Source of the DNA: Lysobacter enzymogenes
Lineage (GTDB): Bacteria; Pseudomonadota; Gammaproteobacteria; Xanthomonadales; Xanthomonadaceae
Assembly (NCBI RefSeq): GCF_017355525.1
Contig: NZ_CP067395.1
Span: forward strand, 930,001-994,000
Reading direction: 5' to 3'
Length of the DNA stretch: 64,000 bases
A model generated the notes under the pieces. It was given only the letters and a program-made list of their open reading frames with translations. It searched no databases and was not told the origin of the DNA. Of this stretch, positions 43,054-58,642 are shown in pieces. Each line of letters opens with the position of its first letter. Within the stretch, counting starts at the first letter, position 1. A program made the position numbers and the translations under genes.

Positions 43054-43067
43054 CGCAATCGATTGCA
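43054..43067. promoter_or_regulatory. LacI-type operator upstream of the glycoside dehydrogenase operon
   Basis: CGCAATCGATTGCA: 13 of 14 bases identical to the perfect palindrome at 51914-51927, with a perfect 12-bp core GCAATCGATTGC. It sits 115 bp upstream of the first gene of the plus-strand operon, a good position for repression by the LacI protein encoded 9 kb away. Confidence 0.7.
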
Positions 43068-43181
43068 TCCAGGCGAATTTTGCGGTTTCATGCGGATAGC
43101 GAGGTTCGCGGCGGAATCGATGTCCGCTGGTTCGAAGACTCGTTCGAGCAACCTAACGGCTATCGGCTTCAGGAAGCGAAA

Positions 43182-44072
43182 ATGAGCTTTACGAACCCCA
43201 AGATCACGCGCAGGAACGCGATCCGCACCGCGGCGCTGGCCGGCCTCGGACTCGCCGCGACCGCGGTCGCTCCCGGCATGGCGATCGCCGCTGCGCCCGA
43301 CGGCAAGCTCAAGGGACGGCTGAAGCAATCGGTCTGCCGCTGGACGCTGCCGAAGCAGTCGCTCGCCGAACTCTGCCAGACGGTCAAGAGCATCGGTTTT
43401 TCCGCGATCGACCTGGTCGGCCCGGACGACTGGCCGACCTTGAAGGCGCACGGCGTATTCAGTTCGATGTGCAACGGCGCCGAGCTGGGCCTGAAGAAAG
43501 GCTTCGCCGCGACCGAGTTCCACGACCAATTGGTGGAACGCTACACCCGCCATATCGATCTGGTCGCCGATGCCGGTTACCGCAACCTCATCTGCTTTTC
43601 CGGCAACCGCAACGGCATGGACCCGCGCGAGGGACTGGCCAACGCCGAGGCCGGGATCAAGCGCATCCTCGGCCACGCCGAAAAGCGCGGCGTCGTGCTG
43701 GTGATGGAACTGCTCAATTCCCGGGTCGACCACCCCGACTACCTGTGCGACCGCTCCGCGTGGGGCGTCGAATTGTGCGAACGCATCGGGTCGGACCACT
43801 TCGGGCTGCTGTTCGACATCTACCACATGCAGATCATGGAAGGCGACATCATCGCCAGCATCCGCAAGCACCATGGGTTCTTCAAGCATTACCACACCGC
43901 GGGCGTGCCGGGCCGCAACGAGATCGGCGCGGACCAGGAACTCAACTATCCCGCGATCTGCCGCGCGATCCGCGATACCGGTTTCGACGGCTACCTGGCG
44001 CAGGAGTTCACCGCGCTGGCGCCCGATCCGGTCGCCTCGCTGCGCGAGGCGATACGCCTGTGCGACGTCTGA
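43182..44072 (+). CDS. Exported TIM-barrel sugar isomerase/epimerase (hydroxypyruvate-isomerase-like)
   Basis: 296 residues. The N-terminus carries a twin-arginine-type signal (TRRNAIRTAALAGLGLAATAVAPGMAIA), so the enzyme acts in the periplasm. The rest is an AP-endonuclease-2/xylose-isomerase-like TIM barrel (VMELLNSRVDHPDYL, LLFDIYHMQIMEGD, YHTAGVPGRNEIG, with Glu, Asp and His metal ligands). AGGA ribosome site; first gene of the dehydrogenase operon. Members of this fold in similar loci process 3-keto sugars, which is inferred here. Confidence 0.88.
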   Translation: MSFTNPKITRRNAIRTAALAGLGLAATAVAPGMAIAAAPDGKLKGRLKQSVCRWTLPKQSLAELCQTVKSIGFSAIDLVGPDDWPTLKAHGVFSSMCNGAELGLKKGFAATEFHDQLVERYTRHIDLVADAGYRNLICFSGNRNGMDPREGLANAEAGIKRILGHAEKRGVVLVMELLNSRVDHPDYLCDRSAWGVELCERIGSDHFGLLFDIYHMQIMEGDIIASIRKHHGFFKHYHTAGVPGRNEIGADQELNYPAICRAIRDTGFDGYLAQEFTALAPDPVASLREAIRLCDV

Positions 44073-44099
44073 AACCGATATCCACCTGAGGAAGTTCTC

Positions 44100-45785
44100 A
44101 TGGCAGACAATCATTACGACGCGATCGTCGTCGGGTCGGGCATCAGCGGCGGCTGGGCGGCCAAGGAGCTGACCGAAAAGGGGCTCAAGGTCCTGATGCT
44201 GGAGCGCGGCCGCAACATCGAGCACGTCAAGGGCTACGTCAACGCGATGAAAGAAGCGTGGGACTATCCGCACCGCACCTGGGCGACCCAGGAGATGAAG
44301 GCCGCGTTTCCGGTGCTCAAGCGCGACTACCCGCTGGCCGAAGACACGGCCGGGATGTGGGCCGACGAAAAGGATTGCCCTTACACCGAAACCAAGCGCT
44401 TCGACTGGTTCCGCGGTTACCACGTCGGCGGCCGTTCGCTGATGTGGGGCCGTCAGAGCTATCGCCTGTCGGACCTGGATTTCGAGGCCAACCTCAAGGA
44501 AGGCATCGCCACCGACTGGCCGATCCGCTACGCCGACATCGCGCCGTGGTACGACCACGTCGAGAAATTCGCCGGCATCGCCGGCACCGCCGAAGGGCTG
44601 GATGTGTTGCCCGACGGCCAGTTCCTGCCGCCGATCCCGTTGAACGTCGTCGAGAAAGACGTGGCGGCGCGGATCAAAAAAGCGTTCGGCGGCAGCCGCC
44701 GCCTGATCCACTCGCGCACCGCGAACATCACCCAGCCCAAGCCGGAGCAGGGCCGGGTCAATTGCCAGTACCGCAACAAGTGCATCCTCGGCTGCCCGTT
44801 CGGCGCCTATTTCTCGACCCAGTCGGCGACGCTGCCGGCGGCGATGAAGACCGGCAACCTGACCCTGCGCCCGTTCTCGATCGTCAAGCAAGTGATTTAC
44901 GACAAGGACCGCAAGCGCGCGAGCGGGGTCGAGATCATCGACGCCGAGAACGGCCAGACCTATCGCTACACCGCCAAGCTCGTCTTCATCAACGCCTCGG
45001 CCTTCAATTCGACCTGGCTGCTGATGAACTCGGCCACCGACGTCTGGGACGGCGGGCTGGGCTCGGCGTCGGGCGAGCTCGGCCACAACGTCATGGACCA
45101 TCATTTCCGCGTCGGCGCGTCCGGCACGGTCGAAGGCTTCGACGACAAGTACTACTTCGGCCGCCGTCCGTGCGGTTTCTACATTCCGCGTTTCCGCAAC
45201 CTCGGCAAGGACAAGCGCGACTATGTCCGCGGCTTCGGCTACCAGGGCTCGGCCAGCCGCAGCGGCTGGTCGCGCGACATCGCCGAGCTCAGCATCGGCG
45301 CCGAGTTCAAGGACGCGTTGAGCGTTCCCGGAGGCTGGTCGATCGGCATGACCGGGTTCGGCGAGATGTTGCCGTACCACGACAACACGATCCGCCTGGA
45401 TCCGCAGCGCAAGGACAAGTGGGGGCTGCCGGTGCTGGCGATGGACGTGAGCCTGCGCAAGAACGAACGCGCGATGCGCAAGGACATGGGCGCGGACGCC
45501 GCCGAAATGCTGGAGGCGGCCGGGGTCAAGAACGTCAAGGTGCACGAGAACGACTACGCTCCCGGCATGGCCATCCACGAAATGGGTACCGCGCGGATGG
45601 GGCGCGACCGCAAGAACTCGGTGCTGAACATGCACAACCAGGTCTGGGACGCGCCGAACGTCTACGTCACCGACGGCGCCTGCATGACCTCCAGCGCCTG
45701 CGTGAATCCGTCGCTGACCTACATGGCGCTGACCGCGCGCGCGGCGGATCATGCGGTGCGCGAACTCAAGGCGGGGAACCTGTGA
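44100..45785 (+). CDS. GMC-family FAD oxidoreductase, glycoside 3-dehydrogenase large-subunit type
   Basis: 561 residues. FAD-binding VVGSGISGGWAAKEL at 9-23; substrate-side MAIHEMGTARMGRD with candidate catalytic His493; and CVNPSLTYMALTARAADHAVREL with Asn536. This resembles gluconate 2-/glucoside 3-dehydrogenase large subunits such as LacA of Caulobacter. No own signal peptide; export probably depends on the Tat-bearing small subunit encoded next, whose ATG shares one base with this stop. Electrons would pass to the cytochrome c at 47182. Confidence 0.9.
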   Translation: MADNHYDAIVVGSGISGGWAAKELTEKGLKVLMLERGRNIEHVKGYVNAMKEAWDYPHRTWATQEMKAAFPVLKRDYPLAEDTAGMWADEKDCPYTETKRFDWFRGYHVGGRSLMWGRQSYRLSDLDFEANLKEGIATDWPIRYADIAPWYDHVEKFAGIAGTAEGLDVLPDGQFLPPIPLNVVEKDVAARIKKAFGGSRRLIHSRTANITQPKPEQGRVNCQYRNKCILGCPFGAYFSTQSATLPAAMKTGNLTLRPFSIVKQVIYDKDRKRASGVEIIDAENGQTYRYTAKLVFINASAFNSTWLLMNSATDVWDGGLGSASGELGHNVMDHHFRVGASGTVEGFDDKYYFGRRPCGFYIPRFRNLGKDKRDYVRGFGYQGSASRSGWSRDIAELSIGAEFKDALSVPGGWSIGMTGFGEMLPYHDNTIRLDPQRKDKWGLPVLAMDVSLRKNERAMRKDMGADAAEMLEAAGVKNVKVHENDYAPGMAIHEMGTARMGRDRKNSVLNMHNQVWDAPNVYVTDGACMTSSACVNPSLTYMALTARAADHAVRELKAGNL

Positions 45786-46363
45786 TGGAACGTCGCGAAC
45801 TGCTGAAGATGATCGCCGCCGCGACGGGCGCAGCCATGATCGGCCTGCCGGCGCTCGTGTATGGACAGGCGCCGGCGCCGGACGGGAAGCGCGCCTTCTC
45901 CGCGGACGAAGTGGCCCTGCTCGACGAGATCGCGGACACCATCCTGCCGCGGACCAAGACGCCGGGCGCGAAAGACGCGGGCACGGGCCAGTTCATGGCG
46001 ACTTTCGTCAGCGATTGCTACACCCCCGAATACCAGACGATCTTCCATGCGGGCCTGGCCGATATCGACAAGCGCGCGGGAGGCCGGTTCGTCTCGTTGT
46101 CCCCACAGGCGCGCACCGAATTGCTGCGCGCCCTGGACGCCGAAGCCGGACGGCGGGTCAACTCGATGGCGATGGCCACCGGCGACGCCAATCCCAATGC
46201 GGTGAAGCCGCATTACTTCACCATGATCAAGCAGCTCGCGCTGTTCGGCTTCTTCACCTCCAAGGCCGGCGCGACCGAAGCGCTGCGCTACGTCGCGGTG
46301 CCGGGCCGTTACGACGGCGACGCGGCCTACGTGCCGGGCACGCCCGCATGGGCGACCAACTGA
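45785..46363 (+). CDS. Gluconate 2-dehydrogenase subunit 3-family protein
   Basis: 192 residues with a twin-arginine signal (ERRELLKMIAAATGAAMIGLPALVYG). The mature part matches subunit 3 proteins: FSADEVALLDEIADTILPRTKTPGAKDAG, ending with LFGFFTSKAGATEALRYVAVPGRYDGD. It chaperones and co-exports the GMC subunit. Start overlaps the GMC stop as TGATG. Confidence 0.92.
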   Translation: MERRELLKMIAAATGAAMIGLPALVYGQAPAPDGKRAFSADEVALLDEIADTILPRTKTPGAKDAGTGQFMATFVSDCYTPEYQTIFHAGLADIDKRAGGRFVSLSPQARTELLRALDAEAGRRVNSMAMATGDANPNAVKPHYFTMIKQLALFGFFTSKAGATEALRYVAVPGRYDGDAAYVPGTPAWATN

Positions 46364-46404
46364 TGCTGCGGCGGCGCGCTCGCGCCGCTGCTGCCGGAGC
46401 AACG

Positions 46405-47151
46405 ATGGCTACACCGATCCAGTCGATGGCGTTCGCCATCCTCGCCGCAGCGCCCGCGTTCGCGCAGGCCCAGGACGCGCCGCAGCGCGATCCCGCCAGC
46501 ACCGAAGTCTGGAAGCCGGTTCCCGCGGCCGTGGCCACGCCGAAGGACGCCGCGCCGTCCGATGCGGTGGTGCTGTTCGACGGCAAGCAGCTCTCGGAAT
46601 GGGAGGCGGAGCAGGGCGGCAAGGCGCCGTGGGCCGTCGCCGACGGCGCTGTCACCGTGGTGCCCGGCAGCAAGGGCATCCGCACCAAGCGGCGCTTCTG
46701 CGACATCCAGCTGCATATCGAATGGCGCACCCCGGTCAAGACCCAGGGATTCGACGGCCAGCACCGCGGCAACAGCGGGATTTTCCTGCAGGAGCTCTAC
46801 GAACTGCAGGTGCTCGACAGCTACCGCAACCCGACTTATGCCAACGGCCAGGCGGCTTCGATCTACAAGCAGTCGATCCCGCTGGTCAACGCCTCGCGCG
46901 CGCCGGGCCAGTGGCAGGCGTACGACGTGATCTGGAAGGCCCCGCGTTTCTCGCAAGGCGGCGGCCTGGTCTCGCCGGCGCGCATCACCGTGCTGCACAA
47001 CGGCGTGCTGGTGCAGAACGACACCGTCGTGTCCGGCAAGACCGAGTACATCGGCGCGCCGTCCTATTCGCCGCACGGCTGCGCGCCGATCTATCTGCAG
47101 GATCACGATTCCAAGATCAGCTACCGCAACATCTGGGTGCGGGAGCTGTAG
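46405..47151 (+). CDS. Exported DUF1080 protein (3-keto-disaccharide hydrolase domain)
   Basis: 248 residues: signal peptide (ending PAFAQAQ) then the DUF1080 jelly-roll fold, starting DAVVLFDGKQLSEWEAEQGGKAPWAV and containing GNSGIFLQELYELQVLDSY and GQWQAYDVIWKAPRF. The family name in Pfam is 3-keto-disaccharide hydrolase. The ATG at 46405 has GGAG at proper spacing; an ATG at 46363 overlapping the previous stop (TGATG) is a real alternative adding 14 residues. Probably cleaves the 3-keto product of the dehydrogenase. Confidence 0.88.
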   Translation: MATPIQSMAFAILAAAPAFAQAQDAPQRDPASTEVWKPVPAAVATPKDAAPSDAVVLFDGKQLSEWEAEQGGKAPWAVADGAVTVVPGSKGIRTKRRFCDIQLHIEWRTPVKTQGFDGQHRGNSGIFLQELYELQVLDSYRNPTYANGQAASIYKQSIPLVNASRAPGQWQAYDVIWKAPRFSQGGGLVSPARITVLHNGVLVQNDTVVSGKTEYIGAPSYSPHGCAPIYLQDHDSKISYRNIWVREL

Positions 47152-47181
47152 CGGCGCGCAGCGGAACGCCGGGCCGGCGTC

Positions 47182-47481
47182 CTACTGTTTGAGGAAGACC
47201 GCGAGGTCTTCGAGATCCTTCTCCGTCAGCTGGCCGAACGGCGGCATCAGTCCGCCTCCGGTCTTGATCCGCTCCTTGATCTTCTTCGCGTCGAGCCGTT
47301 TGCCGACATCGGTCAGGGCCGGAAACATCTCGCCCATGCCGGCGCGGTTGGGGCCGTGGCAGGACGCGCAATTGGCGGCATAGAGCTTGGCGCCCGCCGC
47401 GGAATCCTGCGCGGCGGCGGGCGCGGCGGCCAGCGCCGCGGCGAGGACGGGCACGGCTGCGATCAGAACGTAGTTCGACAT
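47182..47481 (-). CDS. Periplasmic c-type cytochrome
   Basis: 99 residues: signal peptide ending AAAQD, one heme site CASCH (about 38-42) and an axial Met in GGGLMPPFGQLTE. Class I mono-heme cytochrome, a probable electron acceptor for the glycoside dehydrogenase, as LacB is in Caulobacter. Last gene of the minus operon, convergent with the DUF1080 gene. Confidence 0.92.
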   Translation of the reverse strand: MSNYVLIAAVPVLAAALAAAPAAAQDSAAGAKLYAANCASCHGPNRAGMGEMFPALTDVGKRLDAKKIKERIKTGGGLMPPFGQLTEKDLEDLAVFLKQ

Positions 47482-47496
47482 GGGAGTTCTCCGCGC

Positions 47497-48354
47497 TCAG
47501 CGGTCCGCGCCTGCGGGCAGGTGCTGGTTGAGGTAGGCCGCGCCGGTCTTGACGACCGCAGCGGGGTCGAGCGGATGATCGTGCTCGATGATGTACCACT
47601 TCACGCCCGCGCGCGCGGCGGCGGGAAGGATCGTATTCCAGTCCAGCACGCCCTTGCCCAGGGCGGCGAAACCGTCCTCGTCCTTGGCCTGGCCCGGCGG
47701 AGCGTTGTCCTTGGCGTGCACCGCGAACACGCGCCCGCGGAACTTGCCGAGCAAGTCCGCCGGGTCGCGGCCGGCGCGCGCGATCCAGGCCAGGTCGAGC
47801 TCGGCCTGAAGCTGCGGGCCTGCGCCTTCGAACAGGAGTTCCAGGCCGGTCTTGCCGTCGAAATCGACGAGCTCGAAGTCGTGGTTGTGATAGGCCAGGG
47901 TCATGCCCTTGGCCCGGACTTTATTCGCTATCGCGCCCAGTTCCTTGCCCAACGCGATCCAGCCGGCTGCGTCGGTCGGACGTTCTTCCTTTTTCAGGTA
48001 GGGCACCACAAGCGTCGTGTTGCCGATCGCCTTGTTGAACGCCACCACGCCGTCGAGGTCGCTGCGCAGGTCGGCGAGCTGCGCATGGGTCGAGATCGCC
48101 TTGATCGAGTACTTGCCGAGCAGTTGCTTGAGCGTCTTGGCCGAAACGTCCTGGGTGCCGACCGTCTCGACGGCGCGGACGCCGGCGTCGTGGACGATCT
48201 TCAGGCGTTCGTCGAGCGAGGCGATGCTGCGCAAGGTGTACATCTGCACGGCGATGGGCTTGGCCTGGGTCGCGGCGTGTTGCGCCAAGGCGGGTAGGGC
48301 GGTCAGGAACAAAAGTGCGGCGGCCGCGAGGGTGCGCGGTGTAGCGATCGTCAT
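47497..48354 (-). CDS. Exported TIM-barrel sugar isomerase/epimerase
   Basis: 285 residues with a Sec signal (LAAAALLFLTALPALAQ). The barrel has the AP-endonuclease-2 pattern: MYTLRSIASLDERLKIVHDAGVRAVETVG, LAYHNHDFELVDFDGKTGLELL, ELDLAWIARAGRDPADLL, VFAVHAKDN, WYIIEHDHPLD. Metal ligands Glu, Asp, His are in place. Second isomerase of the locus and also periplasmic; may act on a keto-sugar intermediate. Confidence 0.88.
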   Translation of the reverse strand: MTIATPRTLAAAALLFLTALPALAQHAATQAKPIAVQMYTLRSIASLDERLKIVHDAGVRAVETVGTQDVSAKTLKQLLGKYSIKAISTHAQLADLRSDLDGVVAFNKAIGNTTLVVPYLKKEERPTDAAGWIALGKELGAIANKVRAKGMTLAYHNHDFELVDFDGKTGLELLFEGAGPQLQAELDLAWIARAGRDPADLLGKFRGRVFAVHAKDNAPPGQAKDEDGFAALGKGVLDWNTILPAAARAGVKWYIIEHDHPLDPAAVVKTGAAYLNQHLPAGADR

Positions 48355-48434
48355 GGTGTCCTCCCGGAAGGGTGATGGCTGCGGACGAGGTCGGAACGCG
48401 GAAGGCGAGCGGCTCGTCGTGGCGGATACGCGAG

Positions 48435-49589
48435 TCAGTCGGGCCCTCGCTCTGCGTCGTGAGCCCGGCCGATCGCGGTCCAGGCGCGCGTGCGCGACGA
48501 TGCGACGACGCGGTCGACGATCAGCGCCGAACGCAGCCCGTCGTCGAAGGTCGGCAGCCCGTCCGGCGCTTCGGCGGCGATGGCGCGATAGCTGTCCGCG
48601 ACGAAGGCCTCGAAGCAATAAGCGTAGCCCTGCGCGTGGCCGACCGGCAGCGCCGACAGCCGGCGTTGCTCCGCGCTGCCCGCCGCCGGGCCGCGCACGA
48701 AGATTTCTTCGCGCTGGTCGGGCCGGCCGATCCACAGCCGTTCGCTGTCTTCCTGGTCGAACGCGACGCTGGCGTGGGCGCCGTCGATTTCGAACCAGAG
48801 GCGATTGCGGCGCCCGGCCGAGACCTGGCTGACCGTCAACGCGGCCAGGATGCCGCTGCCGGTCTTGAACATCGCCGCGGCGACGTCTTCGCTTGAGACG
48901 GCCTGCATCGCCCCGCCGGCGGCCGGGCCGGCATAGCTCTGGCCGGTGGCGGCGCTGCGTTGCGCGATCACGGTTGCGAACGCGGCGCTGACCTCGACGA
49001 AGCGTTCGCCGGCGACCCATTCCACCAGATCGCACCAGTGCGAGCCGATGTCGGCGAACACGCGCGAGACGCCGCCGAGCGCCGGATCCACGCGCCAATT
49101 GTTGCTGGCCGGATCCAGCAGCCAGTCCTGCAGGTAGCTGCCGTGGATCAGCCGCAGCGGCCCGAGTTCGCCCTGGGCGATGCGCGCGCGCGCTTCGCGC
49201 ACGACCGGGTGATAGCGGTAGACGAACGGCACCGTCGCCACGAGCCCGCTGGCGGCGGCCAACGCCGCGAGCGCTTCGGCATCTTCCAGCGTCGTGGCCA
49301 GGGGCTTTTCGCAGATCACGTGCTTGCCGGCTTCCAGCGCGGCCTGCGCCATCGCCCGATGCAGGTGGTTGGGCGTGCAGACGTGCACGACCTGCACCTG
49401 CGGATCGGCGAGCGCTTCGTCGATGTCGCGATAGGCGCGCGCGACGTTCCAGGCGGACGCTACGTCCGCGGCGCGTTGCGGCGACGACGCGCTCACGCCG
49501 ACGACCCGGGCGCCGGCCAGGATCGCCGCGCGCCGATGCACGTTGCCGATCATGCCGGTGCCTACGACGGCGACTCCAAGCGGGCTCAT
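48435..49589 (-). CDS. Gfo/Idh/MocA-family sugar oxidoreductase
   Basis: 384 residues. N-terminal Rossmann fold (VAVVGTGMIGNVHRRAAI), the family motif EKPLATT (ICEKPLATTLEDAEAL) with its catalytic Lys, and the C-terminal domain with DIGSHWCDLVEW. No signal, so cytoplasmic; probably reduces or oxidises an imported keto-sugar. 8 bp after the transporter gene. Confidence 0.93.
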   Translation of the reverse strand: MSPLGVAVVGTGMIGNVHRRAAILAGARVVGVSASSPQRAADVASAWNVARAYRDIDEALADPQVQVVHVCTPNHLHRAMAQAALEAGKHVICEKPLATTLEDAEALAALAAASGLVATVPFVYRYHPVVREARARIAQGELGPLRLIHGSYLQDWLLDPASNNWRVDPALGGVSRVFADIGSHWCDLVEWVAGERFVEVSAAFATVIAQRSAATGQSYAGPAAGGAMQAVSSEDVAAAMFKTGSGILAALTVSQVSAGRRNRLWFEIDGAHASVAFDQEDSERLWIGRPDQREEIFVRGPAAGSAEQRRLSALPVGHAQGYAYCFEAFVADSYRAIAAEAPDGLPTFDDGLRSALIVDRVVASSRTRAWTAIGRAHDAERGPD

Positions 49590-49597
49590 CGATTTCC

Positions 49598-50818
49598 TCA
49601 CGGTGCGGACGGCGCGGCGGAAGCGGCGGCCGGCCGCTCGCGGAACAGGAACGCGAACGCCACCAGCACGATCAAGGCGACGCCGGCCGGGAACAGCCAA
49701 ATCTGCTGCCAGTCGCGGCCCGCCGCGGTGGTGTAGTGCTCCACGACCGCGCCGGACAGGAAGCTGCCGATCAACATGCCGACGCCGTAGGTCGCCAAGG
49801 TGATGAAGCCTTGCGCGCTGCTGCGGAACGCGGGGCCGGCATGGGCATCGGTGTAGATCTGGCCGGTGACGAAGAAGAAGTCGTAGCAGATGCCGTGCAG
49901 GACGATGCCGGCGACGAGCAACGCGAACCCGCTGCCGGCGTCGCCGTAGGCGAACAGGACGTAGCGCAGCACCCACGCCGCCATGCCGAGCGCCAGCATG
50001 GTCTTCACCCCGAGCCGCGCGAACAGGAACGGCATCGCCAGCATCAGCAGCACCTCGGACACCTGCCCGAGCGACTGTAATCCGGCCGCGCCGCGCACGC
50101 CCAGGTCGTTGAGATACGGGTTGGTGAAGTTGTAGTAGAACGACAGCGGGACGCAGATCGCGATCGAGGCCAGGAAGAACACCAGGTAGGAACGCGACTT
50201 CAGCAGGCGCAGCGCGTCCAGCCCGAGAATCCGGCCGAGCGTGGCGTTGCGTTGCCGCTCCAGCGGCGGCGTGTCGGGCAGGGTCAGCGCGTACAGGCCG
50301 AGCAGCAGCGAGGCGGCCGCCGCCATCTTGAAGGTGAGGTCGAGCCGGTGCGCCTGTTCCCAGCCGAGCCAGCCGATCAGCGCGCCGGCGACGATCCAGC
50401 CGATGCTGCCGGCGACGCGGACCGGCGGGAACTGCTTTTCCGGCGCCTGCATGTGCCGCATCGCGATGCTGTTGGCCAGCGCCAGGGTCGGCATGAACAG
50501 CAGCATGTAGGCCATGACGCAGGCCGAGAACGTAGCGAAGCTGGTGGCCGCGGACGCGCCCCACATCAGCGCCGCGCCGGCCAGATGCAGCAGCGCCAGG
50601 ATGCGCTGCGCGGCGAAATAGCGGTCGGCGATCAGTCCGACCAGGAACGGCGCGACGATGGCGCCGATGGATTGGCTCAGGAACGCCGTCGCGACCTGGC
50701 TCGCGCTAGCCTGCAAGGGGCCCTGCACGAGGTAGGTGCCCAGGGTGACGAACCACGCCCCCCAGATGAAGAATTGCAGAAACATCATCGCGCTCAGGCG
50801 CGGCATGGTGAATCTCAT
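49598..50818 (-). CDS. MFS transporter of the nucleoside:H+ symporter (NupG/XapB-like) family
   Basis: 406 residues, 12 helices. The N-terminus RLSAMMFLQFFIWGAWFVTLGTYL and the FPPVRVAGSIGWIVAGALIGWL block match the NHS family. In sugar loci such as this one, NHS relatives import sugars rather than nucleosides; the cargo here is inferred to be the free sugar or keto-sugar. Confidence 0.9.
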   Translation of the reverse strand: MRFTMPRLSAMMFLQFFIWGAWFVTLGTYLVQGPLQASASQVATAFLSQSIGAIVAPFLVGLIADRYFAAQRILALLHLAGAALMWGASAATSFATFSACVMAYMLLFMPTLALANSIAMRHMQAPEKQFPPVRVAGSIGWIVAGALIGWLGWEQAHRLDLTFKMAAAASLLLGLYALTLPDTPPLERQRNATLGRILGLDALRLLKSRSYLVFFLASIAICVPLSFYYNFTNPYLNDLGVRGAAGLQSLGQVSEVLLMLAMPFLFARLGVKTMLALGMAAWVLRYVLFAYGDAGSGFALLVAGIVLHGICYDFFFVTGQIYTDAHAGPAFRSSAQGFITLATYGVGMLIGSFLSGAVVEHYTTAAGRDWQQIWLFPAGVALIVLVAFAFLFRERPAAASAAPSAP

Positions 50819-50846
50819 GGCTTCCCCTTTTGCGGACGGCGTCGGA

Positions 50847-51899
50847 TCAAATCCCCAACAAACTGCGCACCGTTTGCGGACTCGCGCCGCTGTCGGCGAA
50901 GTCGTCGAACGCGCGCTCGGTGACGCGGATGAGGTGGTCGCGGATGAAGGCGGCCCCCTCGTGCGCGCCGTCTTCCGGATGCTTCAGGCAGCACTCCCAT
51001 TCCAGTACCGCCCAGCCCGGGAAGTCGTACTGGGCGAGCTTGGAGAAGATCGCCTTGAAATCGATCTGGCCGTCGCCGAGCGAACGGAACCGGCCGGCGC
51101 GGTCGATCCAGTCCTGGTAGCCGCCGTACGCGCCGCTGCGCGCATCGGCGCGGTACTCGGCGTCCTTGACGTGGAAGATGCCGATGCGCTCGTGATAGCG
51201 GTCGATGAAGCCCAGGTAATCCATCTGCTGCAACAGCAGGTGGCTGGGGTCGTACAGGATCTTCGCGCGCGGATGGTGGTCGACGGTGTCGAGGAAGCGC
51301 TCGAAGGTCGCGCCGTCGTGCAGGTCTTCGCCGGGATGGATTTCGTAGCACACATCGACCCCGCAGGCGTCGAACGCGTCCAGGATCGGGCGCCAGCGGC
51401 GGCCGAGTTCGGCGAAGGCGGCTTCGACCAGGCCCGGCGGCCGTTGCGGCCAGGGGTAGAAATAAGGCCAGGCCAGCGCGCCGGAAAATGTCGCATGCGC
51501 GCTCAACCCCAGGCGCTGGCTGGCCTGCGCTGCGAGCATCAGCTGCTCGACGGCCCAGGCTTGGCGGGCAGGGGGATCGCCGCGTTTTTCCGGTGGGGCG
51601 AAACCGTCGAACAAGATGTCGTAGGCTGGATGCACGGCGACCAGCTGGCCCTGCAGATGCGTGGACAGCTCGGTGATGCGGACGCCGTGCCGGTCCAGGG
51701 ACGCGGCGACGTCGTCGCAATAGGCCTGGCTGCGCGCCGCCTGCGCGAGGTCGAAAAGGTGCGGCGCGTTGGTCGGTACTTGTACGCCACAATAACCCAG
51801 GCCGGCGGCCCACTCGGCCAGCGTGTCCAACCGATCGAACGGAGGCTTGTCACCGATGAACTGGGCGAGGAACAGCGCTGGACCCTTGAGCGTTTTCAT
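50847..51899 (-). CDS. Cytoplasmic TIM-barrel sugar isomerase/epimerase
   Basis: 350 residues, no signal peptide. Conserved ligands: YEIHPGEDLHDG (Glu, His), LYDPSHLLLQQMDYL (Asp, His), FHVKDAEY (His) and LEWECCLKHPEDG (Glu). First gene of the minus operon; the LacI operator ends only 15 bp before its start. Third isomerase-fold protein of the regulon and the only cytoplasmic one. Confidence 0.9.
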   Translation of the reverse strand: MKTLKGPALFLAQFIGDKPPFDRLDTLAEWAAGLGYCGVQVPTNAPHLFDLAQAARSQAYCDDVAASLDRHGVRITELSTHLQGQLVAVHPAYDILFDGFAPPEKRGDPPARQAWAVEQLMLAAQASQRLGLSAHATFSGALAWPYFYPWPQRPPGLVEAAFAELGRRWRPILDAFDACGVDVCYEIHPGEDLHDGATFERFLDTVDHHPRAKILYDPSHLLLQQMDYLGFIDRYHERIGIFHVKDAEYRADARSGAYGGYQDWIDRAGRFRSLGDGQIDFKAIFSKLAQYDFPGWAVLEWECCLKHPEDGAHEGAAFIRDHLIRVTERAFDDFADSGASPQTVRSLLGI

Positions 51900-51913
51900 G
51901 GAAATCCGCCTGA

Positions 51914-51927
51914 TGCAATCGATTGCA
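51914..51927. promoter_or_regulatory. LacI-type operator in the isomerase/LacI divergent promoter
   Basis: TGCAATCGATTGCA, a perfect 14-bp palindrome with a central CG, typical of LacI/GalR operators. It lies 15 bp from the isomerase start and 64 bp from the lacI-type gene, so it could control both, including autoregulation. Nearly the same site occurs at 43054-43067. Confidence 0.75.
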
Positions 51928-51990
51928 ATCCTAGCATGGGGTTGTCAGGATGCATGTTGTGCAGCGCAGCGAGGGCGATCGGGCTGAAGC

Positions 51991-52995
51991 ATGGCGACCA
52001 TTTACGACATCGCCAAACGCGCCGGCGTTTCGGCCGGCACCGTGTCGCGCGCGTTGTCGCGGCCGGAGAAGGTGTTGCCGGCCACGCGCCAGCGCATCGA
52101 GGAGGTCGCCGCCGCGCTGGGCTACGTGCCCAACACCGTGGCGCGCACGCTCAAGACCCAGCGCAGCGGCAAGATCCTGGTCACGGTGCCGGACATCGCC
52201 AATCCGTTCTTCGCGCAGATCCTGCAGGGCGCCGAAGAAGCCGCGCAGGCGGCCGACTACGCCGTGCTGCTCGGCGATACCCAGAACCGGCCGGATCGGG
52301 AAGAACGCTACGCGCAGATGCTTCCACGCAACGAGGCCGACGGCCTGATCGTGCTCGGGCACCGGCTGCCGCCGACCGCGCAGGAGATCGTCAAGCGGCT
52401 CGGCACTGCGGCGCCGGTGGTCAACGGTTGCGAGTTCGATCCGGCGCTCGGCATTCCCAGCGTGCACATCGACAACGCCGCGGCCTCGCGCACGGCGATG
52501 GAGCATCTGTACGGCCTGGGGCACGAACGGATCGCCGTGGTAGGCGGACCGGCCGATAACCCCTTGCATCGACAACGGCTCGAAGGCGTCGAAGCCGCCG
52601 CCAAGGCGCGAGGCCGCCGGCGCCTGCTGCAGATCGTTCCGGGCGATTTTTCGATCGAGTCCGGCTATGCCGCGGTGAAGGCTCTGCTGGGGAAGCCGTC
52701 CGCCCCGACCGCCGCGTTCTGCTTTAGCGACCAGATGGCGCTCGGGGTTCTGGCCGCGTGCCGGGATCTTGGAATCCGCGTGCCGCAAGACTTTTCGATC
52801 GTCGGTTTCGACGATCTGGCCTCGTCGCGCTATCTCACTCCGCCGCTGACGACGATCAGCCAGCCGATGCGCGAGATCGGCGTGCGCGCCGTCAACCTGC
52901 TGCTCGCGATCATCGAGGCGGAGCAAGTGCAGCATCAGCAGACGCTCGACTTCAGCTTCATGCTGCGTGGGTCGACCGCGACGGTCGCGTCGTAG
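51991..52995 (+). CDS. LacI-family transcriptional repressor
   Basis: 334 residues. N-terminal HTH plus hinge (IYDIAKRAGVSAGTVSRALSRPEKVLPATRQRIEEVAAALGYVPN over residues 4-50) and a periplasmic-binding-protein-like effector domain (VTVPDIANPFFAQILQGAEEAA, SIVGFDDLASSRYLTPPLTTI). Encoded at the edge of the sugar regulon; the palindromes at 43054 and 51914 are its likely sites. Confidence 0.94.
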   Translation: MATIYDIAKRAGVSAGTVSRALSRPEKVLPATRQRIEEVAAALGYVPNTVARTLKTQRSGKILVTVPDIANPFFAQILQGAEEAAQAADYAVLLGDTQNRPDREERYAQMLPRNEADGLIVLGHRLPPTAQEIVKRLGTAAPVVNGCEFDPALGIPSVHIDNAAASRTAMEHLYGLGHERIAVVGGPADNPLHRQRLEGVEAAAKARGRRRLLQIVPGDFSIESGYAAVKALLGKPSAPTAAFCFSDQMALGVLAACRDLGIRVPQDFSIVGFDDLASSRYLTPPLTTISQPMREIGVRAVNLLLAIIEAEQVQHQQTLDFSFMLRGSTATVAS

Positions 52996-54700: not shown

Positions 54701-54820
54701 CGTTACGCGACAGCAACGCACAGACGCCGGCTTACTCAGCCGGCGTCTTCGTGTGCAACGAAGGTAAATCTCCGTGCTGCGGTTGCATGTACGAAACATG
54801 CAGCGCGGCGCCGCCGCGAC

Positions 54821-55621
54821 TCAAGCGTCCAACGTCGCGCCGCCGTCGACGCGCAGATCGTGCAGCGTGATGTGCCGCGCCCGCTCCGACAACAGGAAGC
54901 AGATCGTCTCCGCCACGTCTTCGGGATCGGCGATGCGGCCCAGCGGAATGCCGAGGCGGAAGCGCTCGCCGTCGCCGCGCAGGATCCGTTGCCGCGCCGC
55001 CTCGTCGTCGGCGAACGCGCGTTGCATCGCGGTGTCGGTGGATCCCGGCGACACGATATTGCAACGCACGCCGAACGGCGCCAGTTCCAGTGCCAGGCAG
55101 CGCAGGTACTGGGTCGCCGCGGCCTTCGACGCGGCGTACGCGGCCATACCGGTGCGCGGCGCCGAGGCGGCGTTGGAACCGACCGCGACGATGCTGCCGC
55201 GGCCGCGTTCGCGCATGCGCGCGGCGACCGTGCCGGCGACGGCGAACGCGCCGCGCGCATTGACCGCCATGCACGCGTCCCAGTCGTCGGGATCGGGTCC
55301 GACCGCTGCGCCGACGCGCAGGATGCCGGCGACGTGGGCCAGATGCGCAATCTCCCCGAGTTCGCGCTCGATCCGCTCCACCATCGCCGCGACCTGGGCG
55401 AGATCGGCGACGTCGCAGACGAATTCCGCGACCTGCGCGCCCTCCCCGCGCAAGCGCCGCGCGCATTCGCGCAACTGCGCTTCGTCGCGGTCGCACAGCG
55501 CCAGCCGCGCCCCCTGCTGCGCGAGCCGCGACGCGGTCGCCGCGCCGATCCCCTGCGCCGCGCCGGTCACCAGCGCCAGGCGCCCGTCGAACTCCCCCGC
55601 TCCGCCGCCCTGCCCGTTCAT
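54821..55621 (-). CDS. entA: 2,3-dihydro-2,3-dihydroxybenzoate dehydrogenase
   Basis: 266 residues, SDR fold with VTGAAQGIGAATASRLA and YAASKAAATQYL. It converts the EntB product to 2,3-dihydroxybenzoate. Identification rests on its fusion-tight location after entC-entE-entB and the PxRTGMAAYAASKAA context typical of EntA/DhbA. Start overlaps the upstream gene stop as ATGA. Last gene of the siderophore operon. Confidence 0.9.
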   Translation of the reverse strand: MNGQGGGAGEFDGRLALVTGAAQGIGAATASRLAQQGARLALCDRDEAQLRECARRLRGEGAQVAEFVCDVADLAQVAAMVERIERELGEIAHLAHVAGILRVGAAVGPDPDDWDACMAVNARGAFAVAGTVAARMRERGRGSIVAVGSNAASAPRTGMAAYAASKAAATQYLRCLALELAPFGVRCNIVSPGSTDTAMQRAFADDEAARQRILRGDGERFRLGIPLGRIADPEDVAETICFLLSERARHITLHDLRVDGGATLDA

Positions 55622-56460
55622 GCCTCGGCCCCCTGCTCCGCCTCGGCCTCGAACGCGTCCATGATCCGATGGCGCTCGTCGTGATAGCGCTCCTCGTCCC
55701 AGCGGTCCTTCCAGTACGGCACCGCGTACATCATCGAACGCGGCACGCCGCGCTCGCGCGCGAGCAGGTCGCGGATCGCGACCACTTGCGCGCTTTCGCC
55801 GGCCAAGGTCACCGACACCGCTTCGCCGCGCGGCCACGGCATCGCGCGCACCGCGTCGAGCAGGCGGCGGCTCGCGCCCGCGGGCTCGCCGTCGCGCGAA
55901 AACCAGCGCGCCTGCAAACCCGGATGCTGCGGCAACGGCTGGATTTCGCCGGCATCGGGCGCTTCCAGCAGCGCATCGATGCGCGCCTGCGCCGGCAGAC
56001 GCGCGATCACCGCGCAAATCAGCGCATAGCTGCTGGGATCGCCGATCAGCAGATGGCGCGGCGCATCGGCGCGGAACAGTTCCGGCCCGCCGGGGCCGCC
56101 CACGCCGAGCGGATCGCCGACGCGCGCGTTCGCCGCCCAACGCGAGGCCGGACCGTCGTCGCCGTGCAGGACGATATCGATCTCCAGCTCGCCCGCATCC
56201 GCATCGAAGCGCGCCACCGTGTAGGTGCGGACGACCGGCCGCGCCGCGCCTTCGGGCCACACCGGGCCGTGCTCGCCGAACTGCGGCAGCGCCGGTGCGT
56301 CGCGCGAGTCGGGCGCGAACAGCAGTTTGATGTGTGCGCCTTCGCAACCGGCCGGGAATCCGGCCAGGTCCTCGCCGCGCAGCGCGATCCTGCGCATCTG
56401 CGGTGTGCGTTGATCGATCCGCGCGACCTGCAGCAGTCGCGCGCGCGGCCGCGCGCTCAT
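55618..56460 (-). CDS. Siderophore-interacting FAD ferric reductase (ViuB/YqjH type)
   Basis: 280 residues. FAD-binding RxYT motif (VVRTYTVARFD), then HGDDGPASRWAANARVGDPLGVGGPGG typical of the SIP family, and a C-terminal YWKDRWDEERYHDERHRIMDAF helix. It would release iron from the imported catecholate by NAD(P)H reduction. Overlaps neighbours on both sides. Confidence 0.92.
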   Translation of the reverse strand: MSARPRARLLQVARIDQRTPQMRRIALRGEDLAGFPAGCEGAHIKLLFAPDSRDAPALPQFGEHGPVWPEGAARPVVRTYTVARFDADAGELEIDIVLHGDDGPASRWAANARVGDPLGVGGPGGPELFRADAPRHLLIGDPSSYALICAVIARLPAQARIDALLEAPDAGEIQPLPQHPGLQARWFSRDGEPAGASRRLLDAVRAMPWPRGEAVSVTLAGESAQVVAIRDLLARERGVPRSMMYAVPYWKDRWDEERYHDERHRIMDAFEAEAEQGAEA

Positions 56461-57764
56461 GCCGCCTCGCGCGCGGGCGCGCCGGCCAGTGCGTCCAGGC
56501 GCTGCGACGGATCGGCCAGCGCCGCATCCATCAACGCCAGCAAGGCGCGATGGTGCGTCTGCAACGTCGCCGCGTCGTAAGCCTGCGGATTGGCTTCGAT
56601 GTCGAAGCGCACGCTGTCGGCCAGCGGCGATACGGTCAGGTCGAGATCTTCGACCGAACCGACCGACACCGGATGCGCGCGGCTGCTCAGGCCGTCGAAC
56701 ACGAAGCCGCGGTCGAACGGCATCAGGTTCAGCACCGGGCCGTACAGCTGGGCGTAGCTGTCGCCCAGGCCGAGATCCTGACGCAGCCATTCGTAGTTGT
56801 AGCGCTGGTGCGGACGCAGTTCGCGCAGTTCCGCCGCGACCGCGCGCGCCAGTTCGGCGAAGCTCCACTGCGCCTGCAGGCGCAGCCGCAGCGGCACCAC
56901 GTTCATGCCCATGCACGGCACGCTCAGCGCCGCCGAACCGAGCCGGTTCATCACCAGCAGACCGAGGCTGATTTCGTCCGCGCCGCTGCGTCCGCGCATC
57001 CACGCGAACACCGCCGCGATCAGCCACGCCGACCAGTCCACGCCGAGCGCGCGCGCCGCGTTGTGCCAACGAAGGTGCTCGCCCGCGGGCAGGCTCAGGT
57101 GCGAGGAGCGCGCGCTGTCGTCGGGCGCGCACTTCGGCCCCAAGGTCACCGGTTCGGGCGCGCCGGCGCAGCGTTGCAGCCAGAACTCGCGGCTGCGCGC
57201 GAACCCGTCGGAAGCGCGGTACTGCGCTTCCTCGGCGACCACCGGCGCCAGCGACCAGTCGCGCGCGGGCGCGGCGGCGCGGCCGCCGGTGGCGGCCGAG
57301 TACAGTTCGGCCACGCGATGGATCAGCAGCAGATAGGCGAAACCGTCCAGCGCGATGTGATGCGCGCGCAGGTACCAAAGATGGCGCTGCGCGCCCAGGC
57401 GAACCAGCGCGGTGGCGAACAACGGCCGCCGCGCCAGATCGGCCGGGCGCAGCAAGTCGTCGCGCATCCAGCGCCAGGCGCTGTCCCAGGGCGCGTCGCA
57501 ACCGATGAAGTCCTCGCGGCCGATCACCACGCTGCGCGGCTCGCGCAGGCACTGCGCGACTTCGCCGTCGTGCGCCCGATAGCGCATGTGCAGCGCGTCG
57601 CAGGCCGTCAGCGCCTCGCGGATCGCCGCTTCCAGCGCCGCTTCGTCGAGCGGGCCGTTCAACTCCACCGCTTCGGCGGTCCACAACGACGGACTGTCCG
57701 GATCGATCTGCTGCGCCGCCCACATGCCCAGTTGCGGGCCGGTCAGCGGCAAGCCGGCGGCCAT
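56457..57764 (-). CDS. Free-standing NRPS condensation protein (VibH-like)
   Basis: 435 residues, a single condensation domain with HHIALDG (135-141), the HHxxxDG active site, plus SLLVMNR-type and LPCMGMNVVPLRL core motifs (GLLVMNRLGSAALSVPCMGMNVVPLRL). No adenylation or carrier domains. In vibriobactin assembly VibH joins DHB from EntB-type carrier to a soluble polyamine; the same chemistry is inferred here. Start shares one base with the entB stop. Confidence 0.88.
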   Translation of the reverse strand: MAAGLPLTGPQLGMWAAQQIDPDSPSLWTAEAVELNGPLDEAALEAAIREALTACDALHMRYRAHDGEVAQCLREPRSVVIGREDFIGCDAPWDSAWRWMRDDLLRPADLARRPLFATALVRLGAQRHLWYLRAHHIALDGFAYLLLIHRVAELYSAATGGRAAAPARDWSLAPVVAEEAQYRASDGFARSREFWLQRCAGAPEPVTLGPKCAPDDSARSSHLSLPAGEHLRWHNAARALGVDWSAWLIAAVFAWMRGRSGADEISLGLLVMNRLGSAALSVPCMGMNVVPLRLRLQAQWSFAELARAVAAELRELRPHQRYNYEWLRQDLGLGDSYAQLYGPVLNLMPFDRGFVFDGLSSRAHPVSVGSVEDLDLTVSPLADSVRFDIEANPQAYDAATLQTHHRALLALMDAALADPSQRLDALAGAPAREAA

Positions 57765-58642
57765 CACGCCGCCCGCCGCTGCTGGATCAGTTCCCACCAC
57801 TGCGCGACGCTGCCGCGCTCGGCGAGTTCGACCAGACCGATCCGCTCGCCGCGCGCCGACCAGCGCTCCAGCAGCGTCATCAACCGGATCGAGTCGAGAC
57901 CGGCTTCGAACGGATTGTCTTCGGCGCCGACTTCTTCGAGCGGCCGTTCCATGATCAACGCCAGCTCGGTGCGCAGCGCGGTCAGGCTGACCGGCAGCCC
58001 GGCACCGTCGGCCAGGGCCTGCGCGCAGTCGGCGCGGCCGATCACCACGCCGCAGCGGCGCGACACGTAGTCCAGCGCCATCTGGTGTTCGTCGGCGGAG
58101 AAGTCGGCGACCGCGTCGGCGACCAGGAACGGCTGGATGTCGTGCATGAACGCGTCGGCCGCGGTCATCATGCAGCCGATATGCGCGTAGATGCCGCAGA
58201 CGATCAGCTGGTCGCGGCCCTGCGCGCGCATGCGCTCGCGCAGGTCGCTGGAGACGAAGGCGCTGTAGCGCCACTTGGTCAGCACGGTGTCGTGCGGGCG
58301 CGGCGCGATCGGCGCGGCCACCGGCGCCAGCTGCGGCTGCGCGGTGATGCCCGGGCCCCACCACGGCTGCAGCAGGCCGCGCTGCTGCGCGCTCTGCACC
58401 GGCGGCTGGGCGGTGTAGACCACCGGTACGCCGGCGTCGTCGCAAGCGTCGCGCAAGGCGCGCACGTTCTCCAGCAACTGCGGCACCGGCGCCTGGGCCT
58501 GGTCGTAGAACGCCAGGAAGTATTCCTGCAAGTCGTGGATCAGCAACACCGCGCGCGACGGTTCGGGGCGCCATTCCACCCGGTTCGGCGGCCAGCGGTG
58601 TTCGGCGGGCATGGGATAGGTCGCGATCTTGGGGATGGTCAT
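57764..58642 (-). CDS. entB: Isochorismatase/aryl carrier protein
   Basis: 292 residues. Isochorismatase domain (1-205) with Asp37 (HDLQEYF), Lys123 (LTKWRYSAF) and the [17 protein letters not shown] strand; then an aryl carrier domain (about 215-290) with Ser251 in EAGLDSIRL, the phosphopantetheine site. It makes 2,3-dihydro-DHB and carries activated DHB. Confidence 0.95.

What the first reader, a model, noticed from the sequence alone, without database searches (positions are those of the whole stretch)
43054..52995. Two convergent operons under one LacI palindrome: a candidate periplasmic 3-keto-glycoside pathway
Seen: TGCAATCGATTGCA upstream of the minus operon and of lacI, and a 13/14 copy upstream of the plus operon. 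Enzymes together: GMC dehydrogenase plus subunit 3 plus cytochrome c (as in Caulobacter LacABC), DUF1080 (3-keto-disaccharide hydrolase family), three isomerase-fold proteins (two exported), Gfo/Idh/MocA oxidoreductase and an MFS importer. Inferred: oxidise a glycoside at C3 in the periplasm, cleave it without a classical glycosidase, import and rescue the keto-sugar. Splitting the dehydrogenase and its cytochrome over two operons is unusual.
Basis: partly seen in the sequence, partly recalled or inferred. Interest (0 to 1): 0.75.

Follow-up and report, generated by a model that had tools for sequence, protein, structure and literature searches.

The report
LacI-controlled glycoside-cleaving gene cluster
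A Lysobacter-type bacterium carries a ten-gene set, apparently switched by one repressor, that probably breaks glycosides by oxidising the sugar instead of hydrolysing it; the chemistry is known from Agrobacterium and others, so this is a well-supported new example rather than a new kind of system.

Summary
Two convergent operons (43182-47151 plus; 51899-47182 minus) and a divergent lacI carry one exact TGCAATCGATTGCA (51914-51927, a single site shared by the minus operon and lacI) and a 13/14 copy (43054-43067). These are the only two hits with at most one mismatch in the 5.95-Mb genome. Eight of 20 same-genus genomes have the cluster and exactly two sites; the 12 without the GMC orthologue have none. 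All 31 retrieved Xanthomonadaceae loci keep both sites, and a repressor-helix residue changes together with the operator. The pathway reading is right in outline and can be sharpened: 'isomerase' 47497-48354 matches the solved beta-eliminase AtOGE (8BVK), and 50847-51899 a solved 2-hydroxy-3-keto-glucal hydratase (8RO4). Likely scheme: C3 oxidation and elimination in the periplasm, import, then hydration and reduction in the cytoplasm, a published four-step pathway. Not found in print here: the one-repressor regulon, both lyase families together, a different reductase subfamily, and an exported isomerase-fold protein (43182-44072) of unknown role. No binding or activity was tested; the substrate is unknown. 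Ordinary in kind, with one open question.

The parts
43054..43067 (.). operator copy CGCAATCGATTGCA, 114 bases before the first plus-operon ATG
   Evidence: aligned with relatives; a copy in this place in 31 of 31 retrieved Xanthomonadaceae loci
43182..44072 (+). sisA: exported (twin-arginine type leader) xylose-isomerase-like TIM barrel, 296 aa; E176, D212, H238, E275 invariant in 50 aligned sequences; reaction unknown
   Evidence: PF01261 90 bits; alignment A1; nearest solved sequences 3ngf, psicose/tagatose 3-epimerases, YgbM, lower 3-keto-D-glucoside 4-epimerase 6wn6
44100..45785 (+). GMC flavoprotein, predicted glycoside 3-dehydrogenase, 561 aa, no leader seen
   Evidence: PF00732/PF05199; fructose dehydrogenase large subunit E 1.7e-31; 75% to Agrobacterium locus proteins L130, L134
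45785..46363 (+). small subunit (Gluconate_2-dh3) with twin-arginine leader; the only PF13618 hit in the genome
   Evidence: 113.8 bits
46363..47151 (+). DUF1080 / 3-keto-disaccharide hydrolase family protein, exported; the only PF06439 hit in the genome (start may be 46405)
   Evidence: 141.2 bits; 4qhz E 6.4e-72
47182..47481 (-). small cytochrome c, 99 aa, exported; electron acceptor of the dehydrogenase (inferred)
   Evidence: PF13442/PF00034
47497..48354 (-). sisB: exported, predicted 3-keto-O-glycoside beta-eliminase like AtOGE
   Evidence: 8bvk E 1.2e-97, metal and catalytic residues kept; 60% to Agrobacterium loci
48435..49589 (-). Gfo/Idh/MocA oxidoreductase without leader, predicted 3-keto-glucose reductase; nearest NCBIfam model levoglucosan dehydrogenase (below its cut-off)
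49598..50818 (-). MFS transporter of the nucleoside:H+ symporter family, predicted importer of the sugar product
   Evidence: PF03825 398.2 bits
50847..51899 (-). sisC: predicted 2-hydroxy-3-keto-glucal hydratase without leader; the only homologue found in the genome
   Evidence: 8ro4 E 5.7e-176 over the full length
51914..51927 (.). operator TGCAATCGATTGCA shared by the minus operon and lacI
51991..52995 (+). LacI-family regulator, 334 aa
   Evidence: PF00356, PF13377; helix residue co-varies with the operator

Best explanation
The ten genes are a self-contained glycoside utilisation locus run by one local LacI repressor. Without inducer LacI sits on both operators and blocks the two operons and its own gene (inferred). 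When induced, the GMC flavoprotein, exported with its twin-arginine small subunit, oxidises the sugar C3-OH of a glycoside or disaccharide in the periplasm and passes electrons on, probably to the cytochrome c. The 3-keto group acidifies C2-H, so the AtOGE-like metalloenzyme (sisB), and for other linkages the DUF1080 protein, expel the aglycone by beta-elimination. This releases 2-hydroxy-3-keto-glucal, or 3-keto-glucose if DUF1080 also adds water. The MFS protein imports the product; the cytoplasmic hydratase (sisC) adds water to give 3-keto-glucose, and the Gfo/Idh/MocA enzyme reduces it to glucose. Shown by sequence: gene identities, leaders (by eye), conserved catalytic residues, shared operator, conserved linkage. 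Inferred: every reaction in this organism, the electron path, the transported species, repression, the inducer, and the role of sisA.
For: sisB matches AtOGE (8BVK) at E 1.2e-97 over residues 31-281, keeping YHNHDFE, ELDLAW, VHAKD and IEHDHP, which hold the AtOGE ligands H132, D163, H189, E233 and catalytic H134. sisC matches 8RO4, deposited as 2-hydroxy-3-keto-glucal hydratase, end to end, E 5.7e-176. The GMC is 75%, sisB 60% and sisC 71-72% identical to the Agrobacterium loci L130 and L134; the four-enzyme pathway was shown in A. tumefaciens (PMC10628242, section 7). The genome has one hydratase, one DUF1080 and one small-subunit hit, all here. All ten genes are linked in the window and in L062-L070 and in 27 of 31 retrieved Xanthomonadaceae loci, the other 4 lacking only a cytochrome hit. 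Operators. Co-variation: of 41 rows, the 6 with helix TAGTVSRAL have a TTCAAT-type half-site and the 35 with SAGTVSRAL do not. Relatives with a 37-42% identical LacI carry TGTAACCGGTTACA-like sites before both transcription units in 7 Halomonas-type and 5 Rhodobacterales loci.
Against: No binding, expression or enzyme data. The Gfo enzyme is only 29-31% identical to those in the Agrobacterium loci L130 and L134, so the reductase step rests on family membership. The operator 14-mer also occurs by background: 22 of 40 genomes outside the genus have 1-6 hits at <=1 mismatch, nearly all away from this cluster. The 6-against-35 co-variation may be a single event in one clade, and at least two genomes appear twice among the 41 rows. 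23 of 49 loci outside Xanthomonadaceae show no TGNAANCGNTTNCA site, and the reversed pattern gives 7 hits against 45. The site lies only 14 bases before the sisC start codon, closer than the 30-140 in which most LacI-family sites lie (PMC4052901). 4 of 31 Xanthomonadaceae loci give no cytochrome hit, so it may not be the obligatory acceptor. sisA has no assigned reaction. The named loci were picked by GMC similarity and capped at the best 80 of 593, which favours intact clusters.
Confidence: 0.82

Rival explanations
1. The locus is mainly a lactose/galactoside route of the Caulobacter LacABC kind: the GMC complex makes 3'-ketolactose, DUF1080 cuts it, and the other enzymes deal with 3-ketogalactose; elimination by sisB is secondary.
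For: [quoted passage not shown] the BH1 locus L119 has the window's gene families except for a cytochrome hit. sisA and DUF1080 occur together in 53 of 67 full-length loci and are both missing in 7.
Against: The window also holds an AtOGE-like lyase and a glucal hydratase, which that proposal does not name. No substrate evidence here; orthology to the Caulobacter proteins was not tested.
Confidence: 0.25
2. A levoglucosan (anhydrosugar) pathway: the Gfo enzyme is the 3-dehydrogenase and the TIM barrels do elimination and hydration.
For: The Gfo protein's best NCBIfam model is levoglucosan dehydrogenase, 181 bits; 6a3f (levoglucosan dehydrogenase by recall, 'putative dehydrogenase' in the listing) is its second-best solved relative; the published pathway has the same four steps (PMC7676230, abstract).
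Against: 181 bits against a cut-off of 650; a periplasmic GMC complex and exported lyases are present, which the abstract of the published pathway does not list.
Confidence: 0.04
3. The GMC complex oxidises a non-sugar alcohol, or free fructose or glucose like its solved relatives, and the cluster is not a glycoside pathway.
For: Best solved relatives of the GMC are fructose and glucose dehydrogenase large subunits.
Against: A keto-glucoside lyase-like and a glucal hydratase-like protein sit in the same regulon, and GMC relatives at 75% identity lie in Agrobacterium pathway loci.
Confidence: 0.03
4. LacI controls only itself and the minus operon; the copy at 43054 is incidental.
For: The copy in the window is 13/14, not exact, and single hits to this 14-mer turn up by background in many genomes.
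Against: A site before sisA is kept in all 31 retrieved Xanthomonadaceae loci, is exact in most, and changes together with the other site and the repressor helix.
Confidence: 0.04

Closest known systems
Agrobacterium tumefaciens four-enzyme O-glucoside pathway (GlycDH, AtOGE, AtHYD, Gfo; PMC10628242)
   Same: GMC dehydrogenase, twin-arginine small subunit, exported beta-eliminase, leaderless hydratase, a Gfo reductase, an adjacent LacI gene
   Different: Window adds DUF1080, sisA, a cytochrome c and an MFS importer, and has two convergent operons; the Agrobacterium-type loci give no sisA or DUF1080 hit. In L134 a sugar ABC transporter with tandem LacI-type sites lies upstream of lacI. The Gfo enzymes are only 29-31% identical.
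Caulobacter crescentus LacABC / DUF1080 lactose cluster (PMC9007349)
   Same: [quoted passage not shown] that the components are a GMC protein, a small subunit and a cytochrome c is recalled
   Different: An AtOGE-type lyase is not mentioned in section 10; dehydrogenase and cytochrome are split over two operons here; substrate not known here; orthology not tested
Bacteroides thetaiotaomicron BT2157-2159 disaccharide 3-keto pathway
   Same: DUF1080 (BT2157) plus Gfo/Idh/MocA enzymes (NCBIfam BT_2158 and BT_2159 models)
   Different: The window's Gfo protein scores 50 of 650 and 42.1 of 750 bits on the BT_2159 and BT_2158 models; here the oxidase is a periplasmic GMC complex
Bacillus smithii levoglucosan pathway LgdA/B1/B2/C (PMC7676230, abstract)
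   Same: Oxidation, elimination, hydration, reduction
   Different: LgdA, the levoglucosan dehydrogenase, starts the pathway there; here a GMC complex is the likely oxidase

Membership tests
A. tumefaciens-type non-hydrolytic glucoside pathway | GMC glycoside 3-dehydrogenase with twin-arginine small subunit | tested here: met
   75% identity to the GMC of Agrobacterium loci L130, L134; adjacent PF13618 protein with RRELLK leader
A. tumefaciens-type non-hydrolytic glucoside pathway | O-glycoside beta-eliminase with H132, D163, H189, E233 metal site and H134 | tested here: met
   aligned residues kept in sisB
A. tumefaciens-type non-hydrolytic glucoside pathway | 2-hydroxy-3-keto-glucal hydratase | tested here: met
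   8ro4, full length, E 5.7e-176
A. tumefaciens-type non-hydrolytic glucoside pathway | Gfo/Idh/MocA reductase of 3-keto-glucose | tested here: inconclusive
   Gfo family member present, but only 29-31% identical to those of L130, L134; activity unknown
A. tumefaciens-type non-hydrolytic glucoside pathway | conversion of a glucoside to glucose plus aglycone | not testable with these tools
   needs enzyme assays
Caulobacter LacABC | GMC, small subunit and cytochrome c together | tested here: met
   all three present by Pfam, in two operons; this make-up of LacABC is recalled, and orthology to the Caulobacter proteins was not tested
Caulobacter LacABC | lactose 3-dehydrogenase activity | not testable with these tools
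   needs assay
PF06439 3-keto-disaccharide hydrolase | score above the Pfam gathering score | tested here: met
   141.2 against 26.8 bits
Levoglucosan dehydrogenase NF052479 | score above the curated cut-off | tested here: not met
   181 against 650 bits
BT_2159 / BT_2158 3-dehydrogenases | score above the curated cut-off | tested here: not met
   50 of 650 and 42.1 of 750 bits
Local LacI-family regulator | LacI HTH and sugar-binding domains, even palindrome with central CG, adjacent autoregulatory site | tested here: met
   rule from PMC4052901 (passages)
Local LacI-family regulator | DNA binding relieved by an inducer | not testable with these tools
   needs gel shift and expression data

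The most novel reading that the evidence does not exclude
sisA is a periplasmic metal-dependent 3-keto-glycoside epimerase or isomerase (for example acting at C4), so that galactosides and other non-gluco glycosides are turned into 3-keto-glucosides before cleavage. Two lyase families of complementary anomer or linkage preference then feed one importer, and the species imported is the unsaturated 2-hydroxy-3-keto-glucal itself, hydrated only in the cytoplasm. This would make the regulon a broad-range glycoside funnel and would suggest where 3-ketogalactose goes in lactose-oxidising bacteria.
Probability: 0.2. Interest if true: 0.6.

Novelty: new member of a known kind. Interest (0 to 1): 0.4.

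Why it matters
It shows the oxidise-eliminate-hydrate-reduce gene set as a linked, apparently repressor-controlled unit in 31 retrieved loci of five genera (Lysobacter, Xanthomonas, Stenotrophomonas, Pseudoxanthomonas, Luteimonas), though patchy: 8 of 20 same-genus genomes have it. It suggests functions for two genes of the kind usually annotated 'sugar phosphate isomerase', gives a testable operator and regulon, and isolates one unassigned partner (sisA) that travels with DUF1080. PMC9007349 (section 10) states that the fate of 3-ketogalactose is unknown and that two sugar epimerases matter for lactose growth in Caulobacter; proteins like sisA and the hydratase are candidates for such roles (orthology not tested).

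Tried and rejected
Counting palindromes in the window at up to 3 mismatches did not separate signal from chance and was replaced by the genome-wide and comparative searches. A promoter and terminator scan gave no promoter (0 against 0.9 expected) and no terminator excess (8 against 7.3 expected), so I draw nothing from it. A simple hydrophobicity score could not tell leaders from other N-termini (Gfo and GMC scored high), so leaders are read by eye. I considered that sisA might be a third beta-eliminase of the AtOGE kind: its invariant residues are the E-D-H-E set of isomerases and epimerases (the role of that set is recalled), and by eye a glutamate stands where AtOGE has its H-x-H; sisA does have an H-x-H elsewhere (H236, H238), and I made no alignment of sisA with AtOGE, so this reading is disfavoured, not excluded. 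In three genomes with sisA but no lyase or hydratase hit near the GMC gene (L120, L125, L126), DUF1080 proteins and a hydratase occur elsewhere and no close AtOGE relative was found (28-29% in two, none in one). A first tally of gene content lost genes for which no start codon was found; it was replaced, and counts are given only (hits over at least half the query; identity floors: sisA 45, sisB 50, DUF1080 45, sisC 55, MFS 40, cytochrome 40, LacI 36%). The Caulobacter LacABC paper and two papers looked up by the DOIs I recalled for the 2024 Angewandte and Nature work on these lyases are not held; what I know of them is recalled.


Full report
WHAT IS THERE. The window lies in a single contig of 5,947,018 bases; its nearest named relatives for two of the proteins are Lysobacter, so I take it as a Lysobacter-type genome. 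Open reading frames give a plus operon of four genes (43182-47151) and a minus operon of five (51899-47182), end to end with 30 bases between the stops, and lacI (51991-52995) divergent from the minus operon. Pfam places all ten above their cut-offs: TIM barrel (sisA), GMC oxidoreductase, Gluconate_2-dh3 subunit, DUF1080 (3keto-disac_hyd); then in the minus operon from its promoter TIM barrel (sisC), nucleoside-symporter-type MFS, Gfo/Idh/MocA, TIM barrel (sisB), cytochrome c. By eye sisA and the small subunit have twin-arginine leaders, DUF1080, sisB and the cytochrome have Sec-type leaders, and the GMC, Gfo, sisC and LacI proteins have none. The names sisA, sisB and sisC are mine.

THE OPERATOR. 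TGCAATCGATTGCA occurs exactly at 51914-51927 and with one change at 43054-43067. A whole-genome search at one mismatch finds these two places only, with none for the pattern read backwards. Number alone is weak evidence: the window count at three mismatches is not above chance, about one chance hit at one mismatch is expected by hand arithmetic in such a genome, and 22 of the 40 genomes outside the genus have one to six such hits, only those of G034 (two) and one of G025 lying at this cluster. The case rests on placement and conservation. One search covered 60 genomes, own included; 20 are of the same genus. Of these 20, 8 have the GMC orthologue at 90% identity or more and exactly two sites each; the other 12 have no such orthologue and no site. 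Among the 20 loci fetched and examined, L062-L070 hold all ten genes and two sites (L070 in a variant form, TTCAATCGATTGAA and TGCAATCGATTGAA); the other 11, which carry more distant GMC genes, hold none within two mismatches. In the 80 named loci (the best 80 of 593, chosen by GMC similarity), all 31 from Xanthomonadaceae genera (L082-L111, L146) have a site before sisA and one between sisC and lacI; of the other 49 only L139 and L158 have any site within two mismatches. In ten aligned genomes the 14-mer is far more constant than its surroundings before the plus operon; beside the sisC-lacI site a CCTAGCATGGG-like stretch is also kept, perhaps a promoter element.

LINK TO THE REPRESSOR. In 41 rows (window, L062-L070, L082-L111, L146; at least two genomes occur twice) the repressor helix reads SAGTVSRAL in 35 and TAGTVSRAL in 6 (L070, L087, L089, L090, L097, L107). 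All 6 of the latter, and none of the former, have a TTCAAT-type half-site. The 6 may descend from one change, so this supports but does not prove the pairing. Farther away, LacI proteins 37-42% identical sit beside the same enzymes, and TGTAACCGGTTACA-like sites lie before both transcription units in 7 Halomonas-type and 5 Rhodobacterales loci. Seven Agrobacterium-type loci have two tandem sites near the upstream end of the locus (coordinates against genes checked for L134 only), and 23 of the 49 non-Xanthomonadaceae loci show no such site (45 matches in the 49 loci against 7 for the reversed pattern). The motif has the features that PMC4052901 (passages) reports for LacI-family sites: an even palindrome with a central CG; over three quarters of such sites lie 30-140 bases before a start codon. 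The sites here are 114, 63 and 14 bases before the starts of sisA, lacI and sisC, so the last is unusually close.

WHAT THE ENZYMES ARE. sisB matches 8BVK at E 1.2e-97. PMC10628242 (passages and sections 7 and 14) says that 8BVK is AtOGE, the A. tumefaciens O-glycoside beta-eliminase that turns 3-keto-phlorizin into phloretin and 2-hydroxy-3-keto-glucal, with metal ligands H132, D163, H189 and (weakly) E233 and catalytic H134; the aligned residues are all kept in sisB. sisC matches 8RO4, deposited as 2-hydroxy-3-keto-glucal hydratase, over its whole length at E 5.7e-176. The GMC is 75%, sisB 60% and sisC 71-72% identical to the Agrobacterium loci L130 and L134. The GMC aligns with fructose dehydrogenase large subunit, with three cysteines and the His and Asn of the C-terminal region in register; that these cysteines hold an iron-sulphur cluster is recalled, not tested. 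DUF1080 is closest to 4QHZ, deposited as a putative glycosyl hydrolase. PMC13273386 (section 3, part 1 of 2) uses a Bacteroides lyase that eliminates a 3-keto-alpha-glucoside and whose variant lacking hydration activity was chosen for that work; that this lyase is a DUF1080 protein is recalled. The Gfo enzyme is nearest to the levoglucosan dehydrogenase model but far below its cut-off (181 of 650 bits), and is only 29-31% identical to those of L130 and L134, so the reductase is apparently of another subfamily. The genome holds one hydratase, one DUF1080 and one small-subunit hit, all in this locus.

HOW IT PROBABLY WORKS. Periplasm: the GMC complex oxidises C3 of the glycosyl unit; electrons go to a carrier, probably the cytochrome; sisB, or DUF1080 for other linkages, eliminates the aglycone. 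Inner membrane: the MFS protein imports the glucal or 3-keto-glucose. Cytoplasm: sisC hydrates, the Gfo enzyme reduces, and glucose enters metabolism. The compartment split (exported eliminase, leaderless hydratase) also appears, by eye, in the Agrobacterium (L130, L134) and Halomonas-type (L113) proteins listed, and 'periplasm' does not occur in the main text of PMC10628242, so the imported intermediate is a point worth testing. Everything in this paragraph is inference from family, leader and known chemistry.

THE OPEN PIECE. sisA is exported, has invariant E176, D212, H238 and E275 in 50 aligned sequences (the window, 28 of the 120 homologues listed and 21 of 36 usable loci) and is nearest to 3ngf, ketose 3-epimerases, YgbM and, lower, a 3-keto-D-glucoside 4-epimerase. 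In 67 full-length loci of 80 it occurs with DUF1080 in 53, both are missing in 7 (Agrobacterium type, which have the eliminase only), sisA alone occurs in 6 and DUF1080 alone in 1; these loci are related, so the counts are not independent. It therefore looks like a partner of the DUF1080 branch. PMC9007349 (section 10) reports that in Caulobacter two sugar epimerases, a reductase and a transporter beside the lactose dehydrogenase matter for lactose growth and that the fate of 3-ketogalactose is unknown. A keto-sugar epimerase role for sisA would fit; it is untested.

COMPARISON AND NOVELTY. The pathway is published in kind (A. tumefaciens, PMC10628242, whose discussion calls it widespread in Rhizobium/Agrobacterium and numerous other plant-associated groups; levoglucosan, PMC7676230 abstract; Caulobacter and Halomonas titanicae clusters, PMC9007349). 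The listings of nine literature searches showed no paper on this cluster in Xanthomonadaceae or on its LacI regulon; I opened five papers in all, most subscription papers are not held, and supplements could not be seen. Stenotrophomonas, Xanthomonas, Lysobacter and LacI do not occur in the main text of PMC10628242. I call it a new member of a known kind, with modest new points: one repressor for two convergent operons kept across five genera, eliminase plus DUF1080 together, a different reductase subfamily, and an unassigned exported partner.

VERDICT. Observation confirmed; interpretation right in outline, corrected in detail; interest moderate.

Noticed in passing
L083:13052 onward (+), Pseudoxanthomonas sangjuensis: A protein with a twin-arginine leader that looks like an alpha-galactosidase lies between DUF1080 and sisB, where other loci have the cytochrome (family by eye only).
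   Followed up: no
L110 and L111, between DUF1080 and sisB, Luteimonas: Where other loci have the cytochrome, a second GMC gene (33% identical, both loci) occurs; in L110 a small-subunit-like protein follows it (by eye).
   Followed up: partly
Xanthomonas sacchari plasmid NZ_CP010410.1, 216644-226488: One place on a 508,653-base plasmid covers 82% of the cluster query at 83.5% identity, so the unit can sit on a plasmid.
   Followed up: no
L134:936-971: In this A. tumefaciens locus two LacI-type sites lie just before a sugar ABC transporter (by eye) that precedes lacI and the pathway genes; the transporter type is swapped relative to the window's MFS.
   Followed up: partly
G000-G019 (same genus): 8 of 20 same-genus genomes have the cluster and 12 lack the GMC orthologue; whether the 12 keep any other gene of it, and gain or loss, were not examined.
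   Followed up: no
window 51928-51945: A CCTAGCATGGG-like stretch next to the sisC-lacI operator is kept in ten aligned genomes and may be a promoter element.
   Followed up: no
window 54800-60300, minus strand: ORFs there read like a catecholate siderophore cluster (dihydroxybenzoate dehydrogenase, condensation, isochorismatase and AMP-ligase-like proteins), by eye.
   Followed up: no
window 47166-47180: A GC-rich hairpin lies in the 30-base gap between the two convergent operons; the scan finds no excess of such hairpins.
   Followed up: no
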